A DNA stretch of 64,000 bases from positions 458,514 to 522,513 of the forward strand of contig JAFFSR010000096.1 of NCBI GenBank assembly GCA_017163975.1, given 5' to 3'. The notes below the pieces were generated by a model, which did no database searches, was not told where the DNA came from, and saw only the letters and a list, made by a program, of their open reading frames with translations. Below are positions 1,790 through 41,529 of the stretch, in pieces. The position numbers were made by a program, and so were the translations under genes. Within the stretch, counting starts at the first letter, position 1, and the number at the start of each line of letters is the position of its first letter. This stretch comes from Anastatus disparis (Eukaryota > Arthropoda > Insecta > Hymenoptera > Eupelmidae).

Positions 1790-3428
1790 GATAGAAGGAA
1801 AGAGGTAGTGAGAAAGAAAGAAAAGATTTAGTGAGCCCTAAATAAAAAATCAGATTAAAGAGCTATGTTAAGGAAATTATTATTCAAAAACTTTTCGCGT
1901 AAAATACAAAAAAAATGAAACATAAAAATTAAAACAAAATTTTTTAAACGGCTCTAAAATTCAAACTACGCTAAGGAAACTAATTTTCAATATAGCTTCC
2001 GGACCAGTTAAACAAAAAAATAAATTGTCTGCAAAATTTGAAGCAAATCCATCGAGTAGTTTTTGAGATGTAACTGGCGTAATGAATACATACACACACC
2101 TGCATACATACAGACATTTTCTGAAAACCACTTTTTTCGACTCCCCGAATCCAAATAAGTACAAGTTAATGAAAAAATTGAAAAAAAAATTTTTTATTAA
2201 TACAATGCTTTCTTTATGAGAAAGCAAAAAAAGTCAGTTTTTATCAACAACATTTTTCACAAAGAAAAGCTGATGGAACCTTGTGATTTTACAGTATCTG
2301 ATGATGTATATTCGAGTCTTTATATATACAAATAATTTTTTTCTTATCGCTGAACATTTTCAATAAACATGCTTTATAGCGTCTTTCATTATTATACATA
2401 GTAAATGTCTAAATAGAGTTCAAGATAAAGCTGAAATCAATGTCAAATCTAAACTTGAGGATAAAGGTAAGATTGATATGACAAATGCATCAAATACTGT
2501 TGATTTACTGTTTAAATAAAAAATTAATGTAATTATTTTTTTAATTATTTGAATGGCTGTTTCTTTAAAATTTCAAAAATATAGCGTTGCTTATAGAATT
2601 TTCAGGTAAAACCATAATTTATCGTAAGGAATCAAATATTTTTGAAACAATTTTGAATGCGCAGTTTAATATAGCCTTATAAAAAAGTAAGGTTTGCATT
2701 TTATATTAAGGTAGTTTTGGCCTCTTTTATAAAAGCATGGAAAGCTTGTCAAAAAAATTTAGGAAATATAAGATTACAAAATTAAAAAAAAGTTTTTTGA
2801 ATTTGGAAAAATATAATATAGGCAAAATAGCATTTTTGGTTATAACTTTATAATAAAAAATTTTTTTTTCACTAATAAAAAATAAAATAATGTATTATTC
2901 TGTTACAAAGTTAAGTTAATCAAATAAATCGGCACAGTAATTATGAAAAAATATGTTTTGAAAATGACTATTATTGTTAGGATAAGAACTCTAGCTGTAG
3001 TCAATTGCAGTTATTTTTATTAATAGTATTTTATTATTCTTATTTGTAGAATCCCGACTAGATATATAAAAAAATAATAGATAATTATTAATTTCATATT
3101 TATTTTATATTTATTAAATTATTTTATGTTTTTTAACTCTTAAATGTAAATGAATAAAAAAATATTATATAAATAAAAATACAACAAGTTCGATGTTGAA
3201 CTTGGTGCAGTTATTTTTTATAACTTTTTTAATGAGTTGAAGCTGAAACCTGATTAAGTCTGAGTACAAAGGCTGTTCTATTGTCTCGTATGTAGTCAGC
3301 ATACATATTTGAGTATATATCGAACGCAAAAATGACTGGGTTCCATTTTCATTTCTCCTGATTTGAATTTTATTTCAGTTCAAGTTCAACCATTTTTCAA
3401 TAATAACCTTAAAATCATTTAAGTTATA
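1790..3428. other. AT-rich gene-less region
   Basis: No gene is recognisable. A stretch at about 1960-2230 contains CATA/CACA tracts and resembles dispersed repeat sequence, but I cannot name the family. The rest is A+T homopolymer-rich DNA. Confidence 0.4.
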
Positions 3429-3817
3429 TTAAGAGGAGGTCACGTATCTCTGTCCTTTTCTAATCAAAGAAATAATTTTTTTACAAAAACTAATAACTTT
3501 ATCAAAAAATGAAGTGAAAGCCGCATCTTGTATCAAAAAAAGCAATAATTTCTTTGATAAGAAAAAATTAATTTTATAGCTTTGTTCTCAAGAAAACCTT
3601 GAAAAACCAAATTGTCCACCCTAACCTCTATGATTTAAGTTTTTCAAGGTTTTCTTGAGAACGAAGCAATAAAATTAATTTTTTCTTATCAAAGAAAATA
3701 TTGCTTTTTTTGATACAAGATGCGGCTTTCTCTTCATTTTTTGATAAAGTTATTAGTTTTTGTAAAAAAATCATTTCTTTGATTAGAAAAGGACAGAGAT
3801 ACGTGACCTCCTCTTAA
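3429..3817. mobile_element. piggyBac-like foldback MITE, copy 1
   Basis: Two arms of about 170 bp are near-perfect inverted copies, beginning TTAAGAGGAGGTCACGTATC and ending with its mirror. The outermost four bases on both sides are TTAA, the target site used by piggyBac-type transposons. Two relatives lie at 11013-11554 and 47640-48022. It is non-coding, so the classification rests on the TTAA ends and is an inference. Confidence 0.8.
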
Positions 3818-4665
3818 TGCTTAATTTATTTATAAATTTGAGCGAATTTCGTTTGCGAACATTTTTCCGTGTGTACTATTTTTTGGAGCATATACTACTG
3901 GAGAAAGCATGCAAATTGCAGCATGCACTACAAGGCAAAAGAAGACATAGCTGCTATCAAGGTATGTACTACCTCTCTCTCGTCCCATTAGATTTGCTGT
4001 TTCCGTTTCCCGCGAACGGAAGTAGCCAATCGAGTGAGGCTAAAGAGAGATAGTCTATACCTTAGCCTATCTGCCTTCTCTTTTTTCGCCTTGTCACGAT
4101 TTTAATAGCTGGGAGGCTCCCTCCTGTAGTACATGCTCGCAAACTATTTTTTACCACATCCAGGCCGTAAATATCGTTTTTGCGTTTTGGAGCCGGGAAC
4201 GAAAGAGTTATTTTTGAATAGAGTGTGGTCAATGTATTATTTTTCGCTTCTAATCTAATAAACAATTACGTCCTTCTATAAATGTATTAAAATGCGAGAA
4301 CATTAATTTTTTCTCACCAAGTTTGTAAGGATAATTGAACTGTTTTAATTATATTGTTACCAATGACGTACAATAGCAAATATAGAAAAAATGCAAATGA
4401 GCATTTTATACAATATGGAGCGACCAAAGAAATTAAAATGCATCAGCGGCAACGGCTCAAAATTTCAGCACTTGTCTGTGGTTCGAGACACTTTGCAGAC
4501 GTTTTCTGGTCTTTTTTATAATTTAATATTAGCGGAAAATACCTCGCTTCCGACGTCACTCGGTTGAATTTTCATATATTACTACTATTATATTAAAGTA
4601 AAGAATTAAGACTTTATTCTTACGTGAATATCTTCTGCATTACTGTCACATACATACATACACAT
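3818..4665. other. Gene-less spacer
   Basis: Short open frames exist on both strands (for example 3817-4053 plus and 4062-4265 minus), but they have no recognisable domain and one starts inside a MITE end. The right part runs into CATA repeats just before the next element. Confidence 0.4.
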
Positions 4666-7271: not shown

Positions 7272-8469
7272 TCAAATTTTTTTATTAGTTATCCTTAAAA
7301 GTGCCACGTATAACTGCTTATGACTGGAAATTGGTGTTGGTAAATACGCTTCTACTATCTTAAATGGTTATCCTTGCGACTTATTAATAGTGATTTCATA
7401 AGCAAGTTTTACATGAAATTATTTTCTGGTCATCTGGAATGGCTGTTCATCATTTGCTGATAAGTTCATACGTAGTAAGAATATAGTACTTTTTTACTTT
7501 CTGTTAATATTTGTACAATAATAGTAAATTGTTTTATTTTCGTTAACCGTGTTGCGTTACAAAGTCCTTCATTTAAATTAACTTTTCTTAGAGGCGTTAC
7601 TATAGCTCCTTTTTTTAATTGTAATCTATGCGGAGGTCAACCGTTCGGCGTTAAATAATTTAAAAATTCTGTTGGCAAAATTGCATCTAAGCTTTCGTCA
7701 CTTACATCTTTTTTAGAGTCGATGCTAAAGTACTCTATTACTGGTTTATTTATTTTTGATAAAATTTTTTCATTCATTTCTGTTACACCAACGTTTTTCG
7801 GTGCTAATATAATATTTTCGTAATAGCCACAATTTTCAATATTTATATTATGACGTAAATTTCATTAATTAGATTGCCGTCTGACAATATTTCTTTTAGA
7901 ATTTGTATAACTTGATTTCCATTTTTCACATTTTGAATAAAAATCACCATTTCCTATATTTAGTAACCAATTTTTAAATTTATCATCTGATTCCAAAAAA
8001 CGTTCATCTTTTTTCAAAGACATACATTTAAAATGTTCCCATAAATAGCTTTTTTTGACACAATTTTCTACTATCTGTGTTCTATTTCCATGTTTTACTA
8101 TTAGTAATGTTTGTCTAAAATCCCCTGATATGATAATTGTTTTCCCTTCAAACAAATAATTATTATCATATACATCTTTAATCATGCGATGTACGGCTTT
8201 AAAAGCGTATTTTAATGTCATTGTGATTTTATCCCAGATAAGAATTGATACATTTTTCATTTTTTTATCTATTTCGCTGTTTACACTAATATTACATATT
8301 GTGTCTTTAGATATGTTCGGTAATTTAAATGCTGTATGTACTGTCACACCGTCTTGTAATAAATTAGACGTTTTACCTGTCCATGATACAACTAAATAGT
8401 TGATTCCATGATTTTTAGATAAGTTATAATTGTATTTAATAAGTAGCTTTTGCCACTTTCACCCGACCG
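7272..8469 (-). pseudogene. Helitron PIF1-like helicase, broken
   Basis: This is the C-terminal half of a Helitron Rep/helicase protein, the enzyme that unwinds DNA during rolling-circle transposition. Reading on the minus strand, a Walker A site GESGKS lies at about 8448-8466. It is followed by VHTAFKLP, then ILIWDK in place of the usual Walker B DE, and SGDFRQ with GNRTQIVENC. Further on come APKNVGVTEMN, LTPNG with PPHRL, GLCNATRL, the TINKSQG motif and a final QLYVALLRIT. The parts fall in three frames: a shift near 7880 and another near 7500, with in-frame TGA/TAA codons around 7650 and 7370-7430. The catalytic Asp-Glu of Walker B reads Asp-Lys. The N-terminal Rep part is missing; the frame runs into a TA repeat at 8472. 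It is certainly non-functional. Confidence 0.88.
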
Positions 8470-8522: not shown

Positions 8523-9630
8523 TTTTCGGTGCAGTTTGTATTAGTAGTTATTGGGGCACCATGGACTGTCGGAAACATACCCCCACTCTGCAACCCCAAA
8601 GGTTACTGATTGGTGAATCAATGACCTCTGAGAAGGCAAAGTAGGGGCTGTTGAGACGGAACATTGGTGCCCTAAGAAATAAATGCACGCTTACACACGT
8701 ACACGCACACACACTCACACGCACACGCACGCACACACAAATAAATACACAAAATTTGAAATTGAGTGCCACATAATGATTGCTTACCAGCTGATCACAG
8801 TTGCAAGCACATCCCGACCTTGACCCACATTGTAGAACAACCTATCTGCCCGGAGTTTCGATGAAGACTGACAGTTAAGCCGAATCTTCACCCCTTAATA
8901 GCCTAACTCTCCCCACCAAAAAATAAAAATATTACATACCATTCTCACATTACGAATAGCAACTCGATACTCTTTGAAAGAAAATATTAATAAGTGTATT
9001 TTGAGGAGCATATTTTAAAATAAAGTTAAAATAATCATAACTAATAAAAAATCACATACCATTCTTACGCTAAGATTGTTAATCGGACTCTTTTTGCAAT
9101 CAATTTCATGAAAAAGACGTATTTTAGGGTGCTGATATTATAAAATTTAAAATTTCAACGTAAGAAATCTCTCTCTCTATAAGACGTATGTACGGGTTTT
9201 GATTTTGTAAAAATTAAAATTTTTCTCTCTCTCTCTCTCTTTCTTTCTGTCTTTACCCTATTTCATTATTATAAAATAAATTAAAAATATGCGTGTATAT
9301 AAGCCTCTCTCTCTCTCCTCTCTCACTCTCTTTCTATCTTTCTAATATGTATGTCTATAAAAAATTTAGAAAACTGCAATATCGGTAACTATGAAGAAAT
9401 CATATATTCTATCACATCCTCTTAACGTGAAACATCTCAAACCTCTCCTTCTCTTTCAGAGTCAGTTAATTTGTATCCAATTATAAATAAAGAAAAAGAA
9501 TAGACTTTAACTAATTTATTCTTTCCAACATCCATTTAAAAAAAAACAGATTAAAATTACCTAAATTCTAATAAAATTTATTTGTTATATACACTGAAGC
9601 GTTCCCGACTTTATTCACGGTCGCCAGGTA
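8522..9630. other. Gene-less region with simple repeats
   Basis: No gene is recognised. An imperfect CA/CG-containing run lies near 8690-8745. Two diverged direct units of about 115 bp sharing CATACCATTCT start near 8935 and 9055. CT runs lie at about 9165-9180, 9220-9245 and 9308-9335. A pyrimidine-rich tract ending in TTTCAG near 9450-9462 could be a 3' splice site of a transcript entering the hairpin cluster, but this is weak. Confidence 0.4.
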
Positions 9631-9713
9631 ATATTTTAATTACCGAATTTAAATTTACTTCATTATTTTAATTAATTACATGCATATACAAGGTGCATAC
9701 AACAATATTGTAT

Positions 9714-9785
9714 AAGAAAATTATGTTTATCGACGATCTCCTCCAGTGCAATACTCTTGGAGATGCGATAATTTATAATTTTCTT
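9714..9785. ncRNA. Covarying hairpin 1 of 4
   Basis: A 72-nt imperfect hairpin. The outer stem pairs AAGAAAATTAT with ATAATTTTCTT and continues through TTATCG/CGATAA. A small internal loop (ACG opposite G) follows, then the stem ATCTCC/GGAGAT and the terminal segment AGTGCAATACT. The inner core and loop match the next three hairpins, while both stems differ in sequence yet stay paired. The strand is not determined. Candidate pre-miRNA or structured RNA; there is no expression evidence. Confidence 0.55.
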
Positions 9786-9810
9786 TACGTGTGGAGGAGA
9801 GGGTAGAATG

Positions 9811-9880
9811 ATAAAAGTTATTATCGACGACTCCGTTGAGTGCAATACTCTAAAGAGTGCGATAATCAACTTTTTTATTA
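9811..9880. ncRNA. Covarying hairpin 2 of 4
   Basis: The outer stem is AAAAGTT/AACTTTT leading into TTATCG/CGATAA. The second stem is ACTC/GAGT, and the terminal stem-loop is GAGT-GCAAT-ACTC. The stem sequences differ from hairpin 1, but pairing is kept around the constant TATCGACGA and TGCGATAA blocks. Confidence 0.55.
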
Positions 9881-9891
9881 TATGAGATATG

Positions 9892-9961
9892 TAGAAAAGT
9901 GTTTAAATCGACGACATCTTTGAGTGCAATACTCTTAGATGTGCGATAAATAACACTTCTA
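9892..9961. ncRNA. Covarying hairpin 3 of 4
   Basis: The outer stem pairs GTGTT/AACAC with AGAA/TTCT flanks (two extra A on the left). The core is ATCG/CGAT, the second stem is ACATCT/AGATGT (six perfect pairs), and the terminal stem-loop is GAGT-GCAAT-ACTC. It is the cleanest example of the shared fold. Confidence 0.58.
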
Positions 9962-9975
9962 TTTAATGCAAAATG

Positions 9976-10049
9976 AATAAACAAATTATTATCGACGACA
10001 TATCCAAGTGCAATACTCTTCAATGTGCGATAATTAATTTGTTTAGTAT
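9976..10049. ncRNA. Covarying hairpin 4 of 4
   Basis: The outer stem pairs AATAAACAAATTA with TAATTTGTTTA plus GTATT, continuing through TTATCG/CGATAA. The second stem is ACAT/ATGT and the terminal segment is AAGT-GCAAT-ACTC. It belongs to the same family as the three hairpins upstream; the copies are spaced roughly 80-95 bp apart. Confidence 0.56.
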
Positions 10050-10830
10050 TTATATGAAAAATGATTAATGAAATGAGATGAGTTATACTTTTATCAATAA
10101 CTTTTTAAACACAGTCTCATTTAAATTTGAAATACTTAATCTTTTTATTAAAAAATTAAGAAAATATATATTTTACAAAGATTCAAAAGTTACTTAGTAT
10201 TTTAAGACAGAATGCTTAAATCTTATACTTTTGACAGTATAAGATTGAATGAATATAGTATCCATGTTAGATGTTACATGGTCGAACATCTAAAAGATAA
10301 TGAGAGAGCTTGCTTGAGTTCACGCTCTTTTATATTATTTCTTAAACCTTCTATGAGGTTCTATTTCTTATTGAAGAATTATATTTTAGGAAATAAAATG
10401 TTCCATAACATTTATTTTAGATATTTACAAAAGAAACATTTAATTAAGATAAATGTATTAGTAGAAGAAACATTCTATTTCCTTTACATTTCAAATAACT
10501 ATTTTTTATAGTTAATTTTATTATTTATTAATTGAAAAAGTTAATCTTTTATATTTTAATTAATATCTTTAAACTTTAAATAGAGTAATCAGTTTCATAC
10601 ATATTATATAAATTGAATGTTCTATTTATATATACACAATTATTTTAGAAAGTTACATTTTATTATTAACAATTAAATATTGATAATACTTTTTATTAAA
10701 AGAAATAGAACATTCTATTTCTATAATCATTTTACTATATCTATATATATACATTTGAGTTATCTTATCGACCTCAGTAGGTAACTATGAAGTCCTACTT
10801 ATTTTTTTTTATGTAATTTAAATTTCTTAT
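10050..10830. other. Hairpin-rich AT DNA downstream of the cluster
   Basis: No gene is recognised. Short inverted repeats are dense: AATCTTATAC with its mirror near 10217-10247, TTAGATGTT with its mirror near 10266-10293, TAACTAT/ATAGTTA near 10497-10514, GAAATAGAA/TTCTATTTC near 10702-10722 and AGTAGG/CCTACT near 10778-10800. The word TTCTATTTC or a close form recurs at about 10360, 10473 and 10713. Some of this is expected by chance in AT-rich DNA. Confidence 0.4.
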
Positions 10831-11012
10831 AACTAAAATTTATTCTATCTTTTAAATAATATAGTCATTCTTATGACATATTTGTGTTTAATTTAATAAT
10901 TATACCCAAAATCAATATGCGCCGTTACAACACATATATTACTACGAACTTGTGAAAGGTAAGTCCTGGCACTAAGACTGGTTCCTTACGAAATATAAAA
11001 AAAGATAAATTA

Positions 11013-11554
11013 TTAAGAGCAGGTCGTATATCTCTATCCTTTTCTAACCAAAAAATCAATTTTTCTGCAAAACTTAATAATTGTAGCAAAAAAATAAGAA
11101 GAAAGCCCCATCTTGTATGATAGAAAGCAATATTTTCTTTTATGAGAAAAAATTATTTTTATCGCTTCGTTTTTAAAAAAAATTTGAAAAATTGAATTGT
11201 CTATTCTAACCTCTACTTTTTAAGTTTTTCAAGGTATTCTTCAAAACGAATCGATAAAAATAATATTTACTTAACTAGTGCAGAAAATTCATTTTCTGCC
11301 CATTTTTTAATTTTCCACACGCTTAATTTTTCGTGCGACAAACAGGCATTAAATTTTATTCGGTACGGAAATGAGGCACCGAAAAACGGATTTTCCGAAC
11401 GCCGTGTTAAAAATAATTTTTCCTCATAAAAGAAAATATTGCTTTTTATGATAAAAGATGGGGCTATCTTCTTATTTTTTGCTACAATTATTAGTTTAAA
11501 AAAAAAATCAATTCTTTTAATAGAAAAGGACAGATATACTCGACCTCCCCTTAA
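11013..11554. mobile_element. piggyBac-like foldback MITE, copy 2
   Basis: Same family as 3429-3817: TTAAGAGCAGGTCGTATATC at the left and its mirror ending in TTAA at the right, with shared inner words such as GCCCCATCTTGTAT and AGCAATATTTTC. It is longer than the other two copies because of a 144-bp insertion at 11265-11408. Confidence 0.8.
11265..11408. mobile_element. 144-bp insertion nested in the MITE
   Basis: The insertion interrupts the right arm of the MITE and is flanked by a perfect 9-bp direct repeat, AAAAATAAT (11256-11264 and 11409-11417). It is less AT-rich than its host, with words such as GGCACCG and CGAACGCCGTG. Its ends do not form obvious inverted repeats. The superfamily is unknown; 8-10-bp duplications occur in hAT, P and Mutator-like elements, among others. 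Confidence 0.6.
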
Positions 11555-16816: not shown

Positions 16817-19800
16817 TGTTTATCGAACTTGATTCAATTTGATCGAATCTTTATCTAATTTTGATCGAATTTTGATCGAATTTGATCGAATATTTATTGA
16901 ATTTAATCGAATGTTTATCGAAATTGATCGAATCTTTATAAAATTTAATCAAATGTTTATCGACTTTCATCGACTCTTATCGACTCTCACTGATTTTTCA
17001 TTAACTTTTATCGACTTTTATCGATTCTCATTGACTTTTCATCAACTTTCATCGACACTTATCGAATTTGATCGAATTTGATCTAATTGTTATCGAATTT
17101 TGATCGAATGTTTATCGAATTTTTATCAAATTTTGATCAAATTTTGATTGAATCTTCATTAAATTTGATTGAATAATTATTGAACTTGATCGAATCTTTA
17201 TCGAATTTGATTGAATGTTTATCGACTCGCATCGAATTTTGATCGAATTTGATTAAATCTTAATTGAATTTAATCGACTGTTTATCGAACTTGATCGAAT
17301 CTATATTGAATTTGATTGAATGTTTATCGAACTTGATCGAATTTGATCGAATGTTTATCGAACTTTATCAATTGTTTATTAAACTTGATCGAATTTGATC
17401 GAATCTTCATCTAATTTTGATCGAATTTTGATCGAATTTGATTGAATCTTTCTTAAATTTGATCGAGAGTTTATCGAACTTGATCGAATCTTTATTGAAT
17501 TTAAACGAACGTTTATCGAACTTGATCAAATCTTTATCGAATTTTGATCGAATTTCATCGAATCTTTATTGAATTAGATCAAATATTTATCGAACTTTAA
17601 TCGAATTTGATCGAATTTTTATTGAATTCGATCGATGGTTTATCAATTTTGATCGAATCTTTATCGAATTTTGATCGAATTTTAATTGAATTTGATCGCA
17701 TCTTTATTGAAGTTGATCGAATGTTTATCGAATTTTGATCGAATTTGATCGAATGCTTATCGAAATTTGATCGAATGTTTATCGAAGTTTAATCGAATTT
17801 GATCGAATCTTTATTGAATTTGATTGGATGTTTATCGAACTTGATCGAATTTCGATCGAATTTTTTTCGAATTTTTTCGAATGTATATCGACTTTCATCG
17901 ACTCTTATCGACTCTCATCGACTCTTACCGATTTTTCATCGACTTTTATCGATTTTTAACAACTTTCATCGACTTTTCATCAACTTTCATCGACTTTTCA
18001 TCAACTTTCATCGACTTTTTATCAACTTTCATCGACTCTTATCGCATTTTGATCGAATGTTTATCGTATTTGGATCGAATTTCGATCGAATTTTGATCGA
18101 ATCTTCATTGAATTTGATTAAATATTTATCGAACTTGATCGAATCTTTATTGAATTCGATCGAATGTTTATCGAACTTGATCGTATCATTATTGAATTTG
18201 ATCGAATGTTTATCAAACTTGATCGTATCATTATTGAATTTAATCGAATGTTTATCGAACTTGATCAAATATTTATCGAACTTGATCAAATTTCATCGAA
18301 TGTTTATCGAATCTTTATTGAATTTGATCGAATGTTTATCGAACTTGATCGAAACTTTATTGAATTTGATTGAATGTTTATCGAATCTTTATTGAATTTG
18401 ATCGCACGTTTATCGAAGTTTGATCAAAATTGTCCGAATCTTGATTGTATTAGATCGAATGTTTATCGACTTTCATTGACTCTTATCGACTCTCATCGAC
18501 TTTTATCGACTCTTATCAACTCTCATCGACTTTTTAACGACTTTCATCGACTTTTATCAACTCTTATCAACTATTATCGACTCGTATCGAATTTTGATCG
18601 AATTTGATTGAATCTTTATTCAATTTAATCGACTGTTTATCGAATTTGATCGAATCTATATAGAATTTGATTGAATTTTTATCGAACTTGATCGAATTTG
18701 ATCGAATGTTTATCGAACTTGATCAATTGTTTATTAAACTTAATCGAATTTGATCGAATCTTCATCTAATTTTGATCAAATTTTGATCGAATTTGATTGA
18801 ATCTTTCTTAAATTTGATCGAGTGTTTATCGAACTTGATCGAATCTTTATTGAATTCAAACGAATGTTTATCGAACTTGATCGAATCTTTATCGAATTTT
18901 GATCGAATTTCATCGAATCTTCATTGAATTTGATTAAATATTTATCGAACTTGATCGAATCTTTAATGAATTCGATCGAATGTTTATCGAACTTGATCGT
19001 ATCATTATTAAATTTGATCGAATGTTTATCGAACTTGATCGAATATTTATCGAACTTGATCGAATTTCATCGAATGTTTATCGAATCTTTATTGAATTTG
19101 ATCGCACGTTTATCGAAGTTTGATCAAAATTGTCCGAATCTTGATTGTATTAGATCGAATGTTTATCGACTTTCATTGACTCTTATCGACTCTCATAGAC
19201 TTTTATCGACTCTTATCGACTCTCCTCGATTTTTTAACGACTTTCATCGACTTTTATCAACTCTTATCAACTATTATCGACTCGCATCGAATTTTGATCG
19301 AATTTGATTGAATCTTTATTGAATTTAATCGACTGTTTATCGAACTTGATCGAATCTATATTAAATTTGATTGCATGTTTATCGAACTCGATCGAATTTG
19401 ATCGAATGTTTATCGAACTTGATCAATTGTTTACTAAACTTGATTGAATTTGATTGAATTTTGATCGAGTTTGATCGAATCTTTCTTAAATTTGATCGAG
19501 TGTTTATCGAACTTGATCGAATCTTCATTGAATTTGATTAAATATTTATCGAACTTGATCGAATCTTTATTGAATTCGATCGAATGTTTATCGAACTTGA
19601 TCGTATCATTATTGAATTTGATCGAATGTTTATCGAACTTGATCGAATATTTATCGAACTTGATCGAATTTCATCGAATGTTTATCGAATCTTTATTGAA
19701 TTTGATCGAATGTTTATCGAACTTGATCGAAACTTTATTGAATTTGATTGAATGTTTATCGAATCTTTATTGAATTTGATCGCACGTTTATCGAAGTTTG

Positions 19801-20613
19801 ATCAAAATTTTCCGAATCTTGATTGTATTAGATCGAATGTTTATCGACTTTCATTGACTCTTATCGACTCTCATAGACTTTTATCGACTCTTATCGACTC
19901 TCATCGATTTTTTAACGACTTTCATCGACTTTTATTGACTCTTATCAAATTTTATCGACTCGCATCGAATTTTGATCGAATTTGATTGAATCTTAATTGA
20001 ATTTAATCGACTGTTTATCGAACTTGATCGAATCTATATTGAATTTGATTGAATGTTTATCGAACTTGATCGAATTTGATCGAATGTTTATCGAACTTTA
20101 TCAATTGTTTATTAAACTTGATCGAATTTGATCGAATCTTCATCTAATTTTGATCGAATTTTGATCGAATTTGATTGAATCTTTCTAAAATTTGATCGAG
20201 TGTTTATCGAACTTGATCGAATCTTTATTGAATTTAAACGAACGTTTATCGAACTTGATCGAATCTTTATCGAATTTTGATCGAATTTCATCGAATCTTT
20301 ATTGAATTAGATCGAATATTTATCGAACTTTAATCGAATTTGATCGAATCTTTATTGAATTCGATCGATGGTTTATCAATTTTGATCGAATCTTTATCGA
20401 ATTTTGATCAAATTTTAATTGAATTTGATCGCATCTTTATTGAAGTTGATCGAATGTTTATCGAATTTTGATCGAATTTGATCGAATGCTTATCGAAATT
20501 TGATCGAATGTTTATCGAAGTTTAATTGAATTTGATCGAATCTTTATTGAATTTGATTGGATGTTTATCGAACTTGATCGAATTTCGATCGAATTTTTTT
20601 CGAATTTTTTCGA

Positions 20614-21264
20614 ATGTATATCGACTTTCATCGACTCTTATCGACTCTCATCGACTCTTACCGATTTTTCATCGACTTTTATCGATTTTTAACAACTTTC
20701 ATCGACTTTTCATCAACTTTCATCGACTTTTCATCAACTTTCATCGACTTTTTATCAACTTTCATCGACTCTTATCGCATTTTGATCGAATGTTTATCGT
20801 ATTTGGATCGAATTTCGATCGAATTTTGATCGAATCTTCATTGAATTTGATTAAATATTTATCGAACTTGATCGAATCCTTATTGAATTTGATTGGATGT
20901 TTATCGAACTTGATCGAATTTCGATCGAATTTTTTTCGAATTTTTTCGAATGTATATCGACTTTCATCGACTCTTATCGACTCTCATCGACTCTTACCGA
21001 TTTTTCATCGACTTTTATCGATTTTTAACAACTTTCATCGACTTTTCATCAACTTTCATCGACTTTTTATCAACTTTCATCGACTCTTATCGCATTTTGA
21101 TCGAATGTTTATCGTATTTGGATCGAATTTCGATCGAATTTTGATCGAATCTTCATTGAATTTGATTAAATATTTATCGAACTTGATCGAATCCTTATTG
21201 AATTCGATCGAATGTTTATCGAACTTGATCGTATCATTATTGAATTTGATCGAATGTTTATCGA
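20614..21264. repeat. 336-bp local tandem duplication in the satellite
   Basis: The segment starting ATGTATATCGACTTTCATCG at 20614 recurs at 20950, exactly 336 bp (16 x 21) later. The second copy lacks one 21-bp unit present in the first. Confidence 0.85.
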
Positions 21265-24200
21265 ACTTGATCGTATCATTATTGAATTTGATCGAATGTT
21301 TATCGAACTTGATCGTATCATTATTGAATTTGATCTAATGTTTATCGAACTTGATCGAATATTTATCGAACTTGATCGAATTTCATTGAATGTTTATCGA
21401 ATCTTTATTGAATTTGATCGAATGTTTATCGAACTTGATCGAAACTTTATTGAATTTGATTGAATGTTTATCGAATCTTTATTGAATTTGATCGCACGTT
21501 TATCGAAGTTTGATCAAAATTGTCCGAATCTTTATTGTATTAGATCGAATGTTTATCGACTTTTATTGACTCTTATCGACTCTCATCGACTTTTATCGAC
21601 TCTTATCAACTGTCATCGACTTTTTAACGTCTTTCATCGACTTTTATCAACTCTTATCAACTATTATCGACTCGCATCGAATTTTGATCGAATTTGATTG
21701 AATCTTAATTGAATTTAATCTACTGTTTATCGAATTTGATCGAATCTATATAGAATTTGATTGAATTTTTATCGAACTTGATCGAATTTGGTCGAATGTT
21801 TATCGTACTTGATCAATTGTTTACTAAACTTGATCGAATTTGATTGAATTTTGATCGAATTTGATCGAATCTTTCTTAAATTTGATCGAGTGTTTATCGA
21901 ACTTGATCGAATCTTCATTGAATTTGATTAAATATTTATCGAACTTGATCGAATCTTTATTGAATTCGATCGAATGTTTATCGAACTTGATCGTATCATT
22001 ATTGAATTTAATCGAATGTTTATCGAACTTGATCGAATATTTATCGAACTTGATCGAATTCCATCGAATGTTTATCGAATCTTTATTGAATTTGATCGAA
22101 TGTTTATCGAACTTGATCGAAACTTTATTGAATTTGATTGAATGTTTATCGAATCTTTATTGAATTTGATCGCACGTTTATCGAAGTTTGATCAAAATTT
22201 TCCGAATCTTGATTGTATTAGATCGAATGTTTATCGACTTTCATTGACTCTTATCGACTCTCATAGACTTTTATCGACTCTTATCGACTCTCATCGATTT
22301 CTTAACGACTTTCATCGACTTTTATCGACTCTTATCAAATTTTATCGACTCGCATCGAATTTTGATCGAATTTGATTGAATCTTAATTGAATTTAATCGA
22401 CTGTTTATCGAACTTAATCGAATCTATATTGAATTTGATTGAATGTTTATCGAACTTGATCGAATTTGATCGAATGTTTATCGAACTTTATCAATTGTTT
22501 ATTAAACTTGATCGAATTTCATCGAATCTTCATCTAATTTTGATCGAATTTTGATCGAATTTGATTGAATCTTTCTTAAATTTGATCGAGTGTTTATCGA
22601 ACTTGATCGAATCTTTATTGAATTTAAACGAACGTTTATCGAACTTGATCGAATTTCGATCGAATTTTTTTCGAATTTTTTCGAATGTATATCGACTTTC
22701 ATCGACTCTTATCGACTCTCATCGACTCTTACCGATTTTTCATCGACTTTTATCGATTTTTAACAACTTTCATCGACTTTTCATCAACTTTCATCGACTT
22801 TTCATCAACTTTCATCGACTTTTTATCAACTTTCATCGACTCTTATCGCATTTTGATCGAATGTTTATCGTATTTGGATCGAATTTCGATCGAATTTTGA
22901 TCGAATCTTCATTGAATTTGATTAAATATTTATCGAACTTGATCGAATCCTTATTGAATTCGATCGAATGTTTATCGAACTTGATCGTATCATTATTGAA
23001 TTTGATCGAATGTTTATCGAACTTGATCGTATCATTATTGAATTTGATCGAATGTTTATCGAACTTGATCGTATCATTATTGAATTTGATCTAATGTTTA
23101 TCGAACTTGATCGAATATTTATCGAACTTGATCGAATTTCATTGAATGTTTATCGAATCTTTATTGAATTTGATCGAATGTTTATCGAACTTGATCGAAA
23201 CTTTATTGAATTTGATTGAATGTTTATCGAATCTTTATTGAATTTGATCGCACGTTTATCGAAGTTTGATCAAAATTGTCCGAATCTTTATTGTATTAGA
23301 TCGAATGTTTATCGACTTTTATTGACTCTTATCGACTCTCATCGACTTTTATCGACTCTTATCAACTATTATCGACTCGCATCGAATTTTGATCGAATTT
23401 GATTGAATCTTAATTGAATTTAATCGACTGTTTATCGAATTTGATCGAATCTATATAGAATTTGATTGAATTTTTATCGAACTTGATCGAATTTGGTCGA
23501 ATGTTTATCGTACTTGATCAATTGTTTACTAAACTTGATCGAATTTGATTGAATTTTGATCGAATTTGATCGAATCTTTCTTAAATTTGATCGAGTGTTT
23601 ATCGAACTTGATCGAATCTTCATTGAATTTGATTAAATATTTATCGAACTTGATCGAATCTTTATTGAATTCGATCGAATGTTTATCGAACTTGATCGTA
23701 TTATTATTGAATTTGATCGAATGTTTATCGAACTTGATCGAATATTTATCGAACTTGATCGAATTCCATCGAATGTTTATCGAATCTTTATTGAATTTGA
23801 TCGAATGTTTATCGAACTTGATCGAAACTTTATTGAATTTGATTGAATGTTTATCGAATCTTTATTGAATTTGATCGCACGTTTATCAAGTTTGATCAAA
23901 ATTGTCCGAATCTTATTGTATTAGATCGAATGTTTATCGACTTTATGACTCACGACCACGTTATCAACTCATCGCTATAATTTGATCGCACGTTTATCGA
24001 AGTTTGATCAAAATTTTCCGAATCTTGATTGTATTAGATCGAATGTTTATCGACTTTCATTGACTCTTATCGACTCTCATAGACTTTTATCGACTCTTAT
24101 CGACTCTCATCGATTTTTTAACGACTTTCATCGACTTTTATCGACTCTTATCAAATTTTATCGACTCGCATCGAATTTTGATCGAATTTGATTGAATCTT

Positions 24201-24390
24201 AATTGAATTTAATCGACTGTTTATCGAACTTAATCGAATCTATATTGAATTTGATTGAATGTTTATCGAACTTGATCGAATTTGATCGAATGTTTATCGA
24301 ACTTTATCAATTGTTTATTAAACTTGATCGAATTTCATCGAAGCTTCATCTAATTTTTATCGAATTTTGATCGAATTTGATTGAATCTTT
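20950..24390. repeat. 1.7-kb higher-order repeat pair
   Basis: Sequence from 20950 matches sequence from 22685 in the same order. Offsets are 1735-1756 bp, falling to 1705 bp after a 51-bp deletion in the second copy near 23365. The offset changes by 21 bp where a satellite unit is gained or lost. The second copy contains the scrambled patch at 23880-23990. Confidence 0.8.
23880..23990. other. Scrambled patch inside the satellite
   Basis: Within otherwise regular satellite, single-base losses accumulate (GTTTATCAAG for GTTTATCGAAG, CTTATTG for CTTGATTG). The order then breaks at TTTATGACTCACGACCACG before normal sequence resumes with ATAATTTGATCGCACG. The pattern looks like a poorly resolved consensus or an assembly join rather than ordinary mutation. 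Confidence 0.6.
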
Positions 24391-27300
24391 CTTAAATTTG
24401 ATCGAATGTTTATCGAACTTGATCGAAACTTTATTGAATTAGATTGAATGTTTATCGAATCTTTATTGAATTTGATCGCACGTTTATCGAAGTTTGATCA
24501 AAATTGTCCGAATCTTGATTGTATTAGATCGAATGTTTATCGACTTTCATTGACTCTTATCGACTCTCATCGACTTTTATCGACTCTTATCAACTGTCAT
24601 CGACTTTTTAACGACTTTCATCGACTTTTATCAACTCTTATCAACTATTATCGACTCGCATCGAATTTTGATCGAATTTGATTGAATCTTTATTGAATTT
24701 AATCGACTGTTTATCGAATTTGATCGAATCTATATAGAATTTGATTGAATTTTTATCGAACTTGATCGAATTTGATCGAATGTTTATCGAACTTGATCAA
24801 TTGTTTACTAAACTTGATCGAATTTGATTGAATTTTGATCGAATTTGATCGAATCTTTCTTAAATTTGATCGAGTGTTTATCGAACTTGATCGAATCTTC
24901 ATTGAATTTGATTAAATATTTATCGAACTTGATCGAATCTTTATTGAATTCGATCGAATGTTTATCGAACTTGATCGTATCATTATTGAATTTGATCGAA
25001 TGTTTATCGAACTTGATCGAATATTTATCGAACTTGATCGAATTCCATCGAACGTTTATCGAATCTTTATTGAATTTGATCGAATGTTTATCGAACTTGA
25101 TCGAAACTTTATTGAATTTGATTGAATGTTTATCGAATCTTTATTGAATTTGATCGCACGTTTATCGAAGTTTGATCAAAATTTTCCGAATCTTGATTGT
25201 ATTAGATCGAATGTTTATCGACTTTCATTGACTCTTATCGACTCTCATAGACTTTTATCGACTCTTATCGACTCTCATCGATTTTTTAACGACTTTCATC
25301 GACTTTTATCGACTCTTATCAAATTTTATCGACTCGCATCGAATTTTGATCGAATTTGATTGAATCTTAATTGAATTTAATCGACTGTTTATCGAACTTA
25401 ATCGAATCTATATTGAATTTGATTGAATGTTTATCGAACTTGATCGAATTTGATCGAATGTTTATCGAACTTTATCAATTGTTTATTAAACTTGATCGAA
25501 TTTCATCGAATCTTCATCTAATTTTGATCGAATTTTGATCGAATTTGATTGAATCTTTCTTAAATTTGATCGAATGTTTATCGAACTTGATCGAAACTTT
25601 ATTGAATTAGATTGAATGTTTATCGAATCTTTATTGAATTTGATCGCACGTTTATCGAAGTTTGATCAAAATTGTCCGAATCTTGATTGTATTAGATCGA
25701 ATGTTTATCGACTTTCATTGACTCTTATCGACTCTCATCGACTTTTATCGACTCTTATCAACTGTCATCGACTTTTTAACGACTTTCATCGACTTTTATC
25801 AACTCTTATCAACTATTATCGACTCGCATCGAATTTTGATCGAATTTGATTGAATCTTTATTGAATTTAATCGACTGTTTATCGATTTTGATCGAATCTA
25901 TATAGAATTTGATTGAATTTTTATCGAACTTGATCGAATTTGATCGAATGTTTATCGAACTTGATCAATTGTTTACTAAACTTGATCGAATTTGATTGAA
26001 TTTTGATCGAATTTGATCGAATCTTTCTTAAATTTGATCGAGTGTTTATCGAACTTGATCGAATCTTCATTGAATTTGATTAAATATTTATCGAACTTGA
26101 TCGAATCTTTATTGAATTCGATCGAATGTTTATCGAACTTGATCGTATCATTATTGAATTTGATCGAATGTTTATCGAACTTGATCGAATATTTATCGAA
26201 CTTGATCGAATTTCATCGAATGTTTATCGAATCTTTATTGAATTTGATCGAATGTTTATCGAACTTGATCGAAACTTTATTGAAATTGATTGAATGTTTA
26301 TCGAATCTTTATTGAATTTGATCGCACGTTTATCGAAGTTTGATCAAAATTTTCCGAATCTTGATTGTATTAGATCGAATGTTTATTGACTTTCATTGAC
26401 TCTTATTGACTCTCATCGACTTTTATTGACTCTTATCGACTCTCATCGACTTTTTAACGACTTTCATCGCCTTTTATCGACTCTTATCAAATTTTATCGA
26501 CTCGCATCGAATTTTGATCGAATTTGATCGAATTTGATTGAATCTTAATTGAATTCAATCGACTGTTTATCGAACTTGATCGAATCTATATTGAATTTGA
26601 TTGAACGTTTATCGAACTTGATCGAATTTGATCGAATGTTTATCGAACTTGATCAATTGTTTATTAAACTTGATCGAATTTGATCGAATCTTCATCTAAT
26701 TTTGATCGAATTTTGATCGAATTTGATTGAATGTTTATCGAACTTGATCAATTGTTTACTAAACTTGATCGAATTTGATTGAATTTTGATCGAATTTGAT
26801 CGAATCTTTCTTAAATTTGATCGAGTGTTTATCGAACTTGATCGAATCTTCATTGAATTTGATTAAATATTTATCGAACTTGATCGAATCTTTATTGAAT
26901 TCGATCGAATGTTTATCGAACTTGATCGTATCATTATTGAATTTGATCGAATGTTTATCGAACTTGATCGAATATTTATCGAACTTGATCGAATTCCATC
27001 GAATGTTTATCGAATCTTTATTGAATTTGATCGAATGTTTATCGAACTTGATCGAAACTTTATTGAATTTGATTGAATGTTTATCGAATCTTTATTGAAT
27101 TTGATCGCACGTTTATCGAAGTTTGATCAAAATTTTCCGAATCTTGATTGTATTAGATCGAATGTTTATCGACTTTCATTGACTCTTATCGACTCTCATA
27201 GACTTTTATCGACTCTTATCGACTCTCATCGATTTTTTAACGACTTTCATCGACTTTTATCGACTCTTATCAAATTTTATCGACTCGCATCGAATTTTGA

Positions 27301-29132
27301 TCGAATTTGATTGAATCTTAATTGAATTTAATCGACTGTTTATCGAACTTAATCGAATCTATATTGAATTTGATTGAATGTTTATCGAACTTGATCGAAT
27401 TTGATCGAATGTTTATCGAACTTTATCAATTGTTTATTAAACTTGATCGAATTTCATCGAATCTTCATCTAATTTTGATCGAATTTTGATCGAATTTAAT
27501 TGAATCTTTCTTAAATTTGATCGAATGTTTATCGAACTTGATCGAAACTTTATTGAATTAGATTGAATGTTTATCGAATCTTTATTGAATTTGATCGCAC
27601 GTTTATCGAAGTTTGATCAAAATTGTCCGAATCTTGATTGTATTAGATCGAATGTTTATCGACTTTCATTGACTCTTATCGACTCTCATCGACTTTTATC
27701 GACTCTTATCAACTGTCATCGACTTTTTAACGACTTTCATCGACTTTTATCAACTCTTATCAACTATTATCGACTCGCATCGAATTTTGATCGAATTTGA
27801 TTGAATCTTTATTGAATTTAATCGACTGTTTATCGAATTTGATCGAATCTATATAGAATTTGATTGAATTTTTATCGAACTTGATCGAATTTGATCGAAT
27901 GTTTATCGAACTTGATCAATTGTTTACTAAACTTGATCGAATTTGATTGAATTTTGATCGAATTTGATCGAATCTTTCTTAAATTTGATCGAGTGTTTAT
28001 CGAACTTGATCGAATCTTTATTGAATTTGATTAAATATTTATCGAACTTGATCGAATCTTTATTGAATTCGATCGAATGTTTATCGAACTTGATCGTATC
28101 ATTATTGAATTTGATCGAATGTTTATCGAACTTGATCGAATATTTATCGAACTTGATCGAATTTCATCGAATGTTTATCGAATCTTTATTGAATTTGATC
28201 GAATGTTTATCGAACTTGATCGAAACTTTATTGAAATTGATTGAATGTTTATCGAATCTTTATTGAATTTGATCGCACGTTTATCGAAGTTTGATCAAAA
28301 TTTTCCGAATCTTGATTGTATTAGATCGAATGTTTATTGACTTTCATTGACTCTTATTGACTCTCATCGACTTTTATTGACTCTTATCGACTCTCATCGA
28401 CTTTTTAACGACTTTCATCGCCTTTTATCGACTCTTATCAAATTTTATCGACTCGCATCGAATTTTGATCGAATTTGATCGAATTTGATTGAATCTTAAT
28501 TGAATTCAATCGACTGTTTATCGAACTTGATCGAATCTATATTGAATTTGATTGAACGTTTATCGAACTTGATCGAATTTGATCGAATGTTTATCGAACT
28601 TGATCAATTGTTTATTAAACTTGATCGAATTTGATCGAATCTTCATCTAATTTTGATCGAATTTTGATCGAATTTGATTGAATCTTTCTTAAATTTGATC
28701 GAGTGTTTATCGAACTTGATCGAATCTTTATTGAATTCAAACGAACGTTTATCGAACTTGATTGAATCTTTATCGAATTTTGATCGAATTTCATCGAATC
28801 TCTATTGAATTAGATCGAATATTTATCGAACTTCAATCGAATTTGATCGAATCTTTATTGAATTCGATCGATGGTTTATCAATTTTGATCGAATCTTTAT
28901 CGAATTTCGATCGAATTTTAATTGAATTTTATCGCATCTTTATTGAAGTTGATCGAATGTTTATCGAATTTCGATCGAATTTGATCGAATGCTTATCGAA
29001 ATTTGATCGAATGTTCATCGAAGTTTAATCGAATTTGATCGAATCTTTATTGAATTTGATTGGATGTTTATCGAACTTGATCGAATTTCGATCGAATTTT
29101 TTTCGAATTTTTTCGAATGTATATCGACTTTC
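24130..29132. repeat. 5.0-kb higher-order repeat, copy 1
   Basis: Matches 29133-34135 at a constant offset of 5003, then 5001-5002 bp. It contains sub-repeats spaced 1168, 783, 1168 and 1884 bp that recur with the same spacing in copy 2. Rare marker variants such as GAAGCTTCATC (24340 and 29343) are shared. Confidence 0.88.
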
Positions 29133-32100
29133 ATCGACTTTTATCGACTCTTATCAAATTTTATCGACTCGCATCGAATTTTGATCGAATTTGATTAAAT
29201 CTTAATTGAATTTAATCGACTGTTTATCGAACTTAATCGAATCTATATTGAATTTGATTGAATGTTTATCGAACTTGATCGAATTTGATCGAATGTTTAT
29301 CGAACTTTATCAATTGTTTATTAAACTTGATCGAATTTCATCGAAGCTTCATCTAATTTTGATCGAATTTTGATCGAATTTGATTGAATCTTTCTTAAAT
29401 TTGATCGAATGTTTATCGAACTTGATCGAAACTTTATTGAATTAGATTGAATGTTTATCGAATCTTTATTGAATTTGATCGCACGTTTATCGAAGTTTGA
29501 TCAAAATTGTCCGAATCTTGATTGTATTAGATCGAATGTTTATCGACTTTCATTGACTCTTATCGACTCTCATCGACTTTTATCGACTCTTATCAACTGT
29601 CATCGACTTTTCAACGACTTTCATCGACTTTTATCAACTCTTATCAACTATTATCGACTCGCATCGAATTTTGATCGAATTTGATTGAATCTTTATTGAA
29701 TTTAATCGACTGTTTATCGAATTTGATCGAATCTATATAGAATTTGATTGAATTTTTATCGAACTTGATCGAATTTGATCGAATGTTTATCGAACTTGAT
29801 CAATTGTTTACTAAACTTGATCGAATTTGATTGAATTTTGATCGAATTTGATCGAATCTTTCTTAAATTTGATCGAGTGTTTATCGAACTTGATCGAATC
29901 TTCATTGAATTTGATTAAATATTTATCGAACTTGATCGAATCTTTATTGAATTCGATCGAATGTTTATCGAACTTGATCGTATCATTATTGAATTTGATC
30001 GAATGTTTATCGAACTTGATCGAATATTTATCGAACTTGATCGAATTCCATCGAATGTTTATCGAATCTTTATTGAATTTGATCGAATGTTTATCGAACT
30101 TGATCGAAACTTTATTGAATTTGATTGAATGTTTATCGAATCTTTATTGAATTTGATCGCACGTTTATCGAAGTTTGATCAAAATTTTCCGAATCTTGAT
30201 TGTATTAGATCGAATGTTTATCGACTTTCATTGACTCTTATCGACTCCCATAGACTTTTATCGACTCTTATCGACTCTCATCGATTTTTTAACGACTTTC
30301 ATCGACTTTTATCGACTCTTATCAAATTTTATCGACTCGCATCGAATTTTGATCGAATTTGATTGAATCTTAATTGAATTTAATCGACTGTTTATCGAAC
30401 TTAATCGAATCTATATTGAATTTGATTGAATGTTTATCGAACTTGATCGAATTTGATCGAATGTTTATCGAACTTTATCAATTGTTTATTAAACTTGATC
30501 GAATTTCATCGAATCTTCATCTAATTTTGATCGAATTTTGATCGAATTTGATTGAATCTTTTTAAATTTGATCGAATGTTTATCGAACTTGATCGAAACT
30601 TTATTGAATTAGATTGAATGTTTATCGAATCTTTATTGAATTTGATCGCACGTTTATCGAAGTTTGATCAAAATTGTCCGAATCTTGATTGTATTAGATC
30701 GAATGTTTATCGACTTTCATTGACTCTTATCGACTCTCATCGACTTTTATCGACTCTTATCAACTGTCATCGACTTTTAACGACTTTCATCGACTTTTAT
30801 CAACTCTTATCAACTATTATCGACTCGCATCGAATTTTGATCGAATTTGATTGAATCTTTATTGAATTTAATCGACTGTTTATCGAATTTGATCGAATCT
30901 ATATAGAATTTGATTGAATTTTTATCGAACTTGATCGAATTTGATCGAATGTTTATCGAACTTGATCAATTGTTTACTAAACTTGATCGAATTTGATTGA
31001 ATTTTGATCGAATTTGATCGAATCTTTCTTAAATTTGATCGAGTGTTTATCGAACTTGATCGAATCTTCATTGAATTTGATTAAATATTTATCGAACTTG
31101 ATCGAATCTTTTATTGAATTCGATCGAATGTTTATCGAACTTGATCGTATCATTATTGAATTTGATCGAATGTTTATCGAACTTGATCGAATATTTATCG
31201 AACTTGATCGAATTTCATCGAATGTTTATCGAATCTTTATTGAATTTGATCGAATGTTTATCGAACTTGATCGAAACTTTATTGAAATTGATTGAATGTT
31301 TATCGAATCTTTATTGAATTTGATCGCACGTTTATCGAAGTTTGATCAAAATTTTCCGAATCTTGATTGTATTAGATCGAATGTTTATTGACTTTCATTG
31401 ACTCTTATTGACTCTCATCGACTTTTATTGACTCTTATCGACTCTCATCGACTTTTTAACGACTTTCATCGCCTTTTATCGACTCTTATCAAATTTTATC
31501 GACTCGCATCGAATTTTGATCGAATTTGATCGAATTTGATTGAATCTTAATTGAATTCAATCGACTGTTTATCGAACTTGATCGAATCTATATTGAATTT
31601 GATTGAACGTTTATCGAACTTGATCGAATTTGATCGAATGTTTATCGAACTTGATCAATTGTTTATTAAACTTGATCGAATTTGATCGAATCTTCATCTA
31701 ATTTTGATCGAATTTTGATCGAATTTGATTGAATGTTTATCGAACTTGATCAATTGTTTACTAAACTTGATCGAATTTGATTGAATTTTGATCGAATTTG
31801 ATCGAATCTTTCTTAAATTTGATCGAGTGTTTATCGAACTTGATCGAATCTTCATTGAATTTGATTAAATATTTATCGAACTTGATCGAATCTTTATTGA
31901 ATTCGATCGAATGTTTATCGAACTTGATCGTATCATTATTGAATTTGATCGAATGTTTATCGAACTTGATCGAATATTTATCGAACTTGATCGAATTCCA
32001 TCGAATGTTTATCGAATCTTTATTGAATTTGATCGAATGTTTATCGAACTTGATCGAAACTTTATTGAATTTGATTGAATGTTTATCGAATCTTTATTGA

Positions 32101-40975: not shown

Positions 40976-41095
40976 CATGGTTGCGAAAAAAGTAATTAAA
41001 AATTATTTGAATCACGAATCATTTTTGAATTTGTAATTAAAGTTTTATTTAATTAACAATTCCTTTTAAATTAACAATTAAAAATATTTTAATTA

Positions 41096-41460
41096 ACAAA
41101 TCAAAATCTAATCGTGAATTGAAAAGGCTTTAATTAAAAAATCAAAAGGAATTCTCAATTAAATAAATTTCAATTGAGAAATCAAAATGTAATCGTGAAT
41201 TGAAAGGGCTTTAATTACAAAATCAAAAGGAATTCTTAATTAAATAAATTTCAATTAAGAAATCAAAAATTAATCGTGAATTGAAAGGGCTTTAATTCCA
41301 AAATCAAAAGGAATCCTTAATTAAATAAATTTCAATTAAGAAATCAAAATGTAATCGTGAATTGAAAGGGCTTTAATTCCAAAATCAAAAGGAATCCTTA
41401 ATTAAATAAATTTCAATTAAGAAATCAAAATGTTATTGTGAATTGAAAGAGCGTCAGTTA
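41096..41460. repeat. 81-bp minisatellite, left arm
   Basis: Five units at an exact 81-bp period (GTGAATTGAAA at 41114, 41195, 41276, 41357 and 41438). Each unit alternates AAATCAAAA, AATCGTGAATTGAAAGGGC, TTTAATTCC and TTAATTAAATAAATTTC. Confidence 0.92.
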
Positions 41461-41529
41461 TGATTATGATTTGTGAATTCGAGGGCTTTAATTAAAAATT
41501 CCACAATTCCTTTTTAATTAAACGTACTA

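What the first reader, a model, noticed from the sequence alone, without database searches (positions are those of the whole stretch)
9714..10049. Four tandem hairpins with constant core and covarying stems
Four ~70-nt hairpins in 336 bp share TATCGACGA on the left, GTGCAATACTC at the tip and TGCGATAA on the right. The stems between and outside these blocks are different in every copy yet stay paired: ATCTCC/GGAGAT, ACTC/GAGT, ACATCT/AGATGT and ACAT/ATGT inside; AAGAAAATTAT, AAAAGTT, GTGTT and AATAAACAAATTA with their mirrors outside. That is compensatory change across four paralogues, strong evidence that the fold is selected, probably as RNA. The layout would suit a miRNA cluster (3' arms could start at a shared GUGCGAU-like seed), but a conserved loop with free stems is the reverse of the usual miRNA pattern and points to a protein- or RNA-binding loop. 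I know no RNA family with this consensus.
Basis: partly seen in the sequence, partly recalled or inferred. Interest (0 to 1): 0.88.

Follow-up and report, generated by a model that had tools for sequence, protein, structure and literature searches.

The report
Four tandem microRNA-like hairpins, unknown family
A short stretch of a probably insect genome holds four neighbouring hairpins whose tips and bulged cores are identical while their stems differ in sequence yet mostly stay paired; they are likely a cluster of microRNA-like genes of a family that Rfam does not list, but no expression could be tested.

Summary
Four hairpins at 9714-10049 share a 43-nt core, ATCGACGA-N8-AGTGCAATACTCT-N6-TGCGATAA: 29 of 29 block positions are identical in all four copies, 0 of 14 spacer positions are. 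The free stems covary: 102 of 116 pair cells hold, against at most 54% when partners are slid by 1-3 columns; 9 of 29 pairs change on both sides, 7 of these paired in all copies. As a set, arms pair best with their own partners. Rfam 15 has no match. Exact patterns found no relative in viral or prokaryotic contigs; the host genome is not held, so homologues and expression stay untested. Best reading (0.42): a tandem cluster of miRNA-type precursors, probably read from the minus strand, whose 5' arm has an invariant 1-8 (UUAUCGCA, a seed), free 9-14 and invariant 15-27 running into the loop. Against it: the 45-nt upper hairpin and 5-nt tip are small for Dicer, and the block opposite the seed, bulges included, is also invariant. 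A two-part protein-binding motif is close behind (0.33). Template switching can mimic the stem covariation but not the fixed core.

The parts
9714..9787 (.). Hairpin copy 1 (core 9729-9771); inner stem ATCTCC/GGAGAT, outer stem AAGAAAATTAT with its mirror
9808..9881 (.). Hairpin copy 2 (core 9823-9865); inner stem ACTC/GAGT
9892..9965 (.). Hairpin copy 3 (core 9907-9949); inner stem ACATCT/AGATGT; AA replaces TT just outside the left block, leaving those two pairs unpaired
9976..10049 (.). Hairpin copy 4 (core 9991-10033); inner stem ACAT/ATGT; outer arms TAAACAAATT and AATTTGTTTA
9750..9771 (-). Predicted 5p guide of copy 1, UUAUCGCAUCUCCAAGAGUAUU (22 nt; ends are inferred, no reads)
   Evidence: ends inferred
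9844..9865 (-). Predicted 5p guide of copy 2, UUAUCGCACUCUUUAGAGUAUU
   Evidence: ends inferred
9928..9949 (-). Predicted 5p guide of copy 3, UUAUCGCACAUCUAAGAGUAUU
   Evidence: ends inferred
10012..10033 (-). Predicted 5p guide of copy 4, UUAUCGCACAUUGAAGAGUAUU
   Evidence: ends inferred
9792..9807 (.). Linker between copies 1 and 2; its TGGAGGAGA is an exact complement of TCTCCTCCA in the left arm of copy 1 (duplex -20.6 kcal/mol); possible template-switch scar or competing pairing

Best explanation
The array is likely a tandem-duplicated cluster of four paralogous microRNA-type precursors, predicted to be transcribed together and probably from the minus strand. Shown: four hairpins in the same orientation, 84-94 nt apart, with an identical bulged core and tip and with stems that covary. 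Inferred: a Drosha-type cut near the border between the free outer stem (lower stem) and the block UUAUCG would release four short hairpins. The 5' arm of each would then be loaded into an Argonaute protein as guide UUAUCGCA-N6-AGAGUAUU(GCACU). All four guides share one seed (positions 2-8, UAUCGCA) and one 3' part and so would repress one common set of mRNAs. The central positions 9-14, which animal miRNAs hardly use for target pairing (established knowledge, not tested here), are free to drift so long as the other arm follows. The tip would be kept because it is the 3' part of the guide, because a loop-binding processing factor reads it, or both.
For: Four separate hairpins of about 74 nt at 84-94 nt spacing in one orientation. 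Predicted lower stems are 11-15 bp on + and 8-14 bp on -, next to the conserved block; Drosha is described as cutting about 11 bp from the basal junction (PMC8865264, passages). Minus 5' arm invariance profile ********......************* over 27 nt: seed fixed, centre free, 3' part fixed. In copy 3 the seed side UU stays while its partner changes and pairing is lost there, as expected if that strand carries the guide. Minus-strand pairs are somewhat more probable in context (mean 0.87-0.97 against 0.62-0.95 on +), and minus pairs 102 against 100 of 116 cells. Covariation of inner and outer stems. Conserved loops are a known minority pattern: about 14% (74 of 533) of human pri-miRNAs (PMC2631628, passages). 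Fast-evolving paralogous miRNA clusters are known in Tribolium (PMC4691753, passages), and some fly clusters arose by tandem duplication (PMC3763532, passages).
Against: The upper hairpin from UUAUCG to CGAUAA is 45 nt in every copy, against about 55-70 nt for usual pre-miRNAs (PMC3919586, passages). The tip loop is 3-5 nt as folded; if the 3-bp tip helix is discounted the loop is 17-21 nt (counted by eye from the columns) but the upper stem then has only about 13 nt; typical terminal loops are 8-38 nt on a stem of about 35 bp. The other arm's block, TCGTCGAT on minus with two bulged bases, is just as invariant; a mere star strand would not need that. Counting 11 nt from the predicted base does not give the same cut in each copy (lower 5' arm 17, 9, 11, 12 nt on minus; 17, 13, 14, 11 on plus). 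No CNNC motif recurs downstream on the plus strand (read by eye; minus not checked). The strand evidence is weak, and both strands fold. The abstract of PMC3763532 says that most fly clusters arose by new hairpins, not by duplication. No expression data and no homologue in another species.
Confidence: 0.42

Rival explanations
1. The hairpins are tandem binding sites for a protein in a long non-coding RNA or an untranslated region. The double bulge and the apical tip are the read-out; the stems are spacers whose sequence does not matter. This is how iron-responsive elements (recalled) or the roX stem-loops work.
For: Both sides of the bulged block and the tip are invariant, 29 of 29, and the spacers have constant length (8 and 6) with strongly diverged sequence. 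The two bulged bases are kept although the helices on either side covary. Tandem stem-loops that bind one protein are known in roX2 (PMC6451107, passages).
Against: No Rfam element matches at gathering. The inner helix is short and imperfect in copies 2 and 4. No binding partner can be named.
Confidence: 0.33
2. The stem covariation is a mutational product: template switching at a quasi-palindrome keeps rewriting one arm from the other, without selection on an RNA fold.
For: Template switching is proposed to create and maintain hairpins, with multi-base compensatory changes (PMC8794818, abstract and passages). A 9-nt reverse-complement copy of part of copy 1 sits in the next linker. Foldback elements are common in the window.
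Against: It does not explain 29 of 29 identical core positions next to 0 of 14, nor the constant 43-nt length. A switch tract running through the arm would erase the two bulges, yet they persist in all four copies. It may still be the mutational source of the stem changes.
Confidence: 0.13
3. The hairpins act as DNA (extruded cruciforms or sites for a recombinase or transposase), or are a short satellite-like repeat in a transposon-rich region.
For: The neighbourhood is rich in foldback elements and satellites. DNA hairpins need no strand preference, and the two strands fold almost equally well. A 13-nt exact direct repeat (9384-9396 and 10780-10792) and a 22-nt inverted pair at 82% (9332-9353 and 10596-10617) straddle the array, both weak in such A+T-rich DNA.
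Against: The array has no second copy in the window. No long, well-matched terminal repeats lie around it among the 25 of 31 inverted pairs shown. No element of this build is known in animals to the author (recalled).
Confidence: 0.07

Closest known systems
Paralogous miRNA clusters of insects (Tribolium mir-3851 and mir-3836 clusters; fly mir-310 cluster)
   Same: Several related hairpins close together on one strand, with divergence outside shared blocks
   Different: Shared seeds named for mir-3851/3836 (AGUACG, AGUACA, CACUGG) are not the ones here; an invariant loop and an invariant opposite-arm block are not described in the passages read; no expression known here
mir-451 class (Dicer-independent, Argonaute-sliced short hairpin)
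   Same: Upper hairpin near 45 nt with a very small tip; a 5p guide would have to run into the loop
   Different: Two bulged bases opposite the seed and imperfect pairing beyond guide position 11 in some copies, unlike the completely complementary stem of pre-miR-451-type designs (start of the abstract of PMC4121517 in the listing). The passages say that no such hairpins had been identified in Drosophila or C. elegans by 2013, though that paper reports candidates
pri-miRNAs with conserved terminal loops (pri-miR-18a type)
   Same: Conserved tip that may be a landing pad for a processing factor
   Different: There conservation is of whole precursors between species; here the centres of the arms vary between paralogues
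roX tandem stem-loops; iron-responsive element
   Same: Works-like resemblance: several stem-loops in one RNA, or a fixed bulge and fixed tip with a free stem between
   Different: Rfam finds no match; the IRE and roX motifs themselves are recalled and were not aligned

Membership tests
Metazoan canonical miRNA precursor | Processed ~22-nt reads with a fixed 5' end from one or both arms | not testable with these tools
   No reads available
Metazoan canonical miRNA precursor | Stem of about 35 bp with a terminal loop of 8-38 nt | tested here: not met
   26-32 pairs per copy on + and 24-30 on -, tip helix included, with a tip loop of 3-5 nt; criteria from PMC8865264 passages
Metazoan canonical miRNA precursor | Lower stem of about 11 bp below the cut | tested here: inconclusive
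   15, 13, 11, 11 bp on + and 14, 8, 9, 11 bp on -, outside the conserved block
Metazoan canonical miRNA precursor | Conserved seed on one arm | tested here: met
   Minus 5' arm positions 1-8 and plus 5' arm positions 2-9 invariant in 4 of 4 paralogues; only paralogues, no other species
mir-451 class | Short pre-miRNA (42 nt in mir-451) too short for Dicer | tested here: inconclusive
   45 nt from UUAUCG to CGAUAA in 4 of 4, if the cut lies there; reference from PMC3919586 passages
mir-451 class | Continuous pairing across seed and slicing site | tested here: not met
   Pairing at guide 9-11 holds in 4 of 4, but two bases are bulged opposite the seed region in 4 of 4
Any Rfam 15 family | Score at or above gathering | tested here: not met
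   0 matches in the window; best E-value below threshold in the array is snR11, 17.6 bits against 42
Tribolium mir-3851 / mir-3836 families | 3p seed AGUACG, AGUACA or CACUGG | tested here: not met
   Seeds compared by eye with the arms: none at a predicted guide start
roX stem-loops / iron-responsive element | Family sequence motif | not tested
   Considered from memory; only the Rfam scans bear on it

The most novel reading that the evidence does not exclude
A natural invertebrate family of mir-451-like, Dicer-independent guide RNAs: four short hairpins whose guide starts with an invariant seed, runs through an invariant tip, and has a free centre (positions 9-14) that the opposite arm tracks by covariation.
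Probability: 0.1. Interest if true: 0.82.

Novelty: new variant of a known kind. Interest (0 to 1): 0.55.

Why it matters
The pattern is the reverse of the usual one: tip and bulged core fixed, stems free but paired. If these are miRNA genes, they separate seed and 3' part from the centre in a natural family and would show which parts of a guide selection guards. If instead they bind a protein, they define a new two-part RNA recognition motif, testable with a 74-nt RNA. Either way the 29-letter core is a sharp query for other animal genomes.

Tried and rejected
Known RNA family: Rfam at gathering gives 0; at E up to 10 on the array, 6 matches, all far below gathering. At E up to 0.5 the whole window gives 40 sub-threshold rows, mostly in tandem or inverted repeats elsewhere, none in the array.

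More copies: a covariance model of the four finds these four at 87-92 bits. The next rows are the same four hairpins read on the other strand (32-19 bits) and two rows at 47.8 kb with E 0.37 and 3.

Relatives elsewhere, exact patterns only: viral contigs 0, 0 and 0 for three patterns. Prokaryotic contigs: 2 matches to a pattern with 19 fixed bases; they are near-identical bacterial stretches in two genomes, without the left block, and about two such hits are expected by chance (own estimate). Rejected.

Literature: the RNA words GUGCAAUACUC and UAUCGACGA (6 papers) and UAUCGCAC with miRNA (1 paper) gave nothing relevant by title. DNA spellings gave 208 papers, of which the 15 listed are unrelated by title; the other 193 were not seen.

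Result against the arm test: although the native pairing is the best set, single swaps can do better. For the inner stem the left arms of copies 2 and 4 fold more stably with the G+C-rich right arm of copy 1 than with their own.

Considered and set aside: U1A/SNF loop motif AUUGCAC, present on the minus strand in the tip (recalled; the required closing pair is absent); SECIS, attC and IRE (recalled; layout does not match or not tested); 3'-arm GUGCGAU seed (not shared by copy 1); mir-8 seed AAUACU in the plus tip (it lies in the loop).

Mistake: one search used a structure out of register by two columns (50% paired, no covariation; its +2 slide gives 86%); one search is the corrected version.

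Full report
What is there. The window holds four hairpins at 9714-9787, 9808-9881, 9892-9965 and 9976-10049, with start-to-start spacing 94, 84 and 84. Written out, every copy is ATCGACGA-N8-AGTGCAATACTCT-N6-TGCGATAA, 43 nt, without a length change. In the four-copy alignment 29 of 29 block positions are identical, 0 of 14 spacer positions are, and 7 of 35 flank columns are. Pairwise, the spacers differ at 3-7 of 8 and 2-6 of 6 positions while the blocks differ at none.

Fold. Each copy folds better than all 200 dinucleotide shuffles on either strand, and the fold of the whole 9650-10100 stretch keeps all four on both strands. Mean pair probability in that context is 0.62-0.95 on plus and 0.87-0.97 on minus. 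Low energy is common in this window: 30 of 2283 80-nt windows scanned on the plus strand, the 16.8-35 kb satellite left out, lie below z -4.5, many of them in repeats and foldback elements. Energy is therefore not the argument; the pattern of change is.

Covariation. On the ungapped minus-strand alignment I counted 29 pairs: 102 of 116 cells are standard pairs, against 37.9-53.8% when the partner is slid by 1-3 columns. Nine pairs change on both sides (shuffled mean 4.6; 2 of 500 shuffles reach it), and the covariation score is 0.362 (shuffled 0.150; 0 of 500). Seven of the nine are paired in all four copies: four in the outer stem and three in the inner stem. The other two, columns 5-72 and 29-47, are each unpaired in two copies. 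Restricted to the free stems, 60 of 72 cells pair, again 9 pairs change on both sides, and the score is 0.583 (shuffled 0.245; 0 of 500). The structure was derived from these sequences, and the tool warns that this and relatedness can inflate such scores. A stricter check swaps whole right arms between copies. By summed folding energy the native pairing is best of 24 arrangements for inner and outer stems on both strands, although the inner left arms of copies 2 and 4 fold better with copy 1's right arm than with their own. By pair counts the native arrangement is best for the outer stem (43 of 52, next 41) and tied best for the inner stem (17 of 20, one other arrangement equal). With four copies 1 in 24 is the floor of this test.

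What the covariation does not prove. Template switching during replication is proposed to write compensatory, even multi-base, changes into both arms in one event (PMC8794818, abstract and passages). The linker 9792-9807 carries a 9-nt exact complement of part of the left arm of copy 1, which could be such a scar. What template switching does not explain is the fixed core. On the plus strand the left arm has two bulged bases, A and G, around one C-G pair, in all four copies, with covarying helices on both sides; a switch tract through the arm would have removed them. So I take the fixed core as the independent sign of selection and the covarying stems as consistent with it.

Known families. 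Rfam 15 gives no match at gathering in the window and nothing credible on the array. Exact-pattern scans of viral contigs gave nothing. Two prokaryotic matches are near-identical bacterial stretches without the left block. No genome is held for the window and no eukaryotic collection was available, so absence elsewhere is not shown. That the source is an insect is an inference from low G+C and transposon content, not a tool result.

Which mechanism. Two readings compete. (1) miRNA cluster. The spacing, the shared orientation and a lower stem of about the right size outside the conserved block (criterion from PMC8865264 passages) fit. On the minus strand the 5' arm is invariant at 1-8, free at 9-14 and invariant at 15-27: seed and 3' part fixed, centre free. 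In copy 3 the partner of the first two bases has changed while the seed side has not. The plus 5' arm keeps 2-9 and is the second choice; on the 3' arms the seed window is broken by a spacer. (2) Protein-binding motif. Both sides of the bulged block and the tip are fixed, with spacers of constant length. A bulge and a tip held apart by a free helix is the layout of recognition elements such as the iron-responsive element (recalled); tandem stem-loops bound by one protein are known in roX2 (PMC6451107 passages).

I prefer (1) at 0.42 because paralogous miRNA clusters are known in insects (PMC4691753; PMC3763532, which adds that most fly clusters arose by new hairpins instead; passages) and because conserved loops are a known minority, about 14% (74 of 533) of human pri-miRNAs (PMC2631628 passages). 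The geometry is a real weakness: a 45-nt upper hairpin and a tip loop of 3-5 nt against about 55-70 nt for usual pre-miRNAs (PMC3919586 passages) and loops of 8-38 nt. That weakness is what opens the novel case, a mir-451-like route in which the guide runs through the tip. Fly cells can use such precursors when given them, and the passages read say that hairpins analogous to mir-451 had not been identified in Drosophila or C. elegans by 2013, though that paper reports candidates. The two bulges opposite the seed speak against slicing.

Status of each step. Shown: the hairpins, their constant core, the covariation, the lack of an Rfam match, and the single occurrence in the window. Inferred: transcription, strand, Drosha-type cutting, guide identity and targets. 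Not testable here: expression, homologues in animals, and binding partners.

Noticed in passing
9792-9807: Linker between copies 1 and 2 contains an exact 9-nt complement of the left arm of copy 1 (16 nt at 81%, duplex -20.6 kcal/mol); a possible template-switch scar or competing fold.
   Followed up: partly
9384-9396 and 10780-10792: Exact 13-nt direct repeat GGTAACTATGAAG on either side of the array; may be chance.
   Followed up: no
10211-10286: Another local hairpin with an 11-bp stem around ATCTTATACT/AGTATAAGAT, z -4.2 on + and -4.9 on -; no likeness to the array seen by eye.
   Followed up: no
11010-11497, 3424-3818, 47640-48027: Family of foldback (MITE-like) elements, pieces 76-88% alike between places.
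   Followed up: partly
56992-60767: Inverted repeats of about 590 nt, 94% alike (56992-57581 and 60178-60767), enclose minus-strand ORFs at 57879-59737; probably a TIR transposon. ORF 58512-59339 has one 43% relative and a 94% identical piece (26% of the query) in a record labelled Escherichia coli, probably animal contamination of that record.
   Followed up: partly
16819-34932: About 18 kb of diverged satellite with a 21-nt unit, TTTATCGAATTTTGATCGAAT, and higher-order periods.
   Followed up: no
41006-45138 and 51815-54120: Large inverted arrangement of shared 50-nt and 81-nt minisatellites (up to 96% alike); within the first part 42547-44442 is a 1.9-kb self-inverted element.
   Followed up: no
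7865-8344: Fragment of a PIF1-like helicase on the minus strand, perhaps a Helitron remnant (Helitron link recalled).
   Followed up: no
38028-39211: Minus-strand ORFs look like a DDE transposase of the Jerky/pogo type (recalled likeness); 4 relatives of one ORF, 54-59% identical, were found in the protein collection.
   Followed up: partly
47401-47480: tRNA-like sequence by eye on the minus strand; ARAGORN calls no tRNA. Possibly a tRNA-derived repeat.
   Followed up: partly
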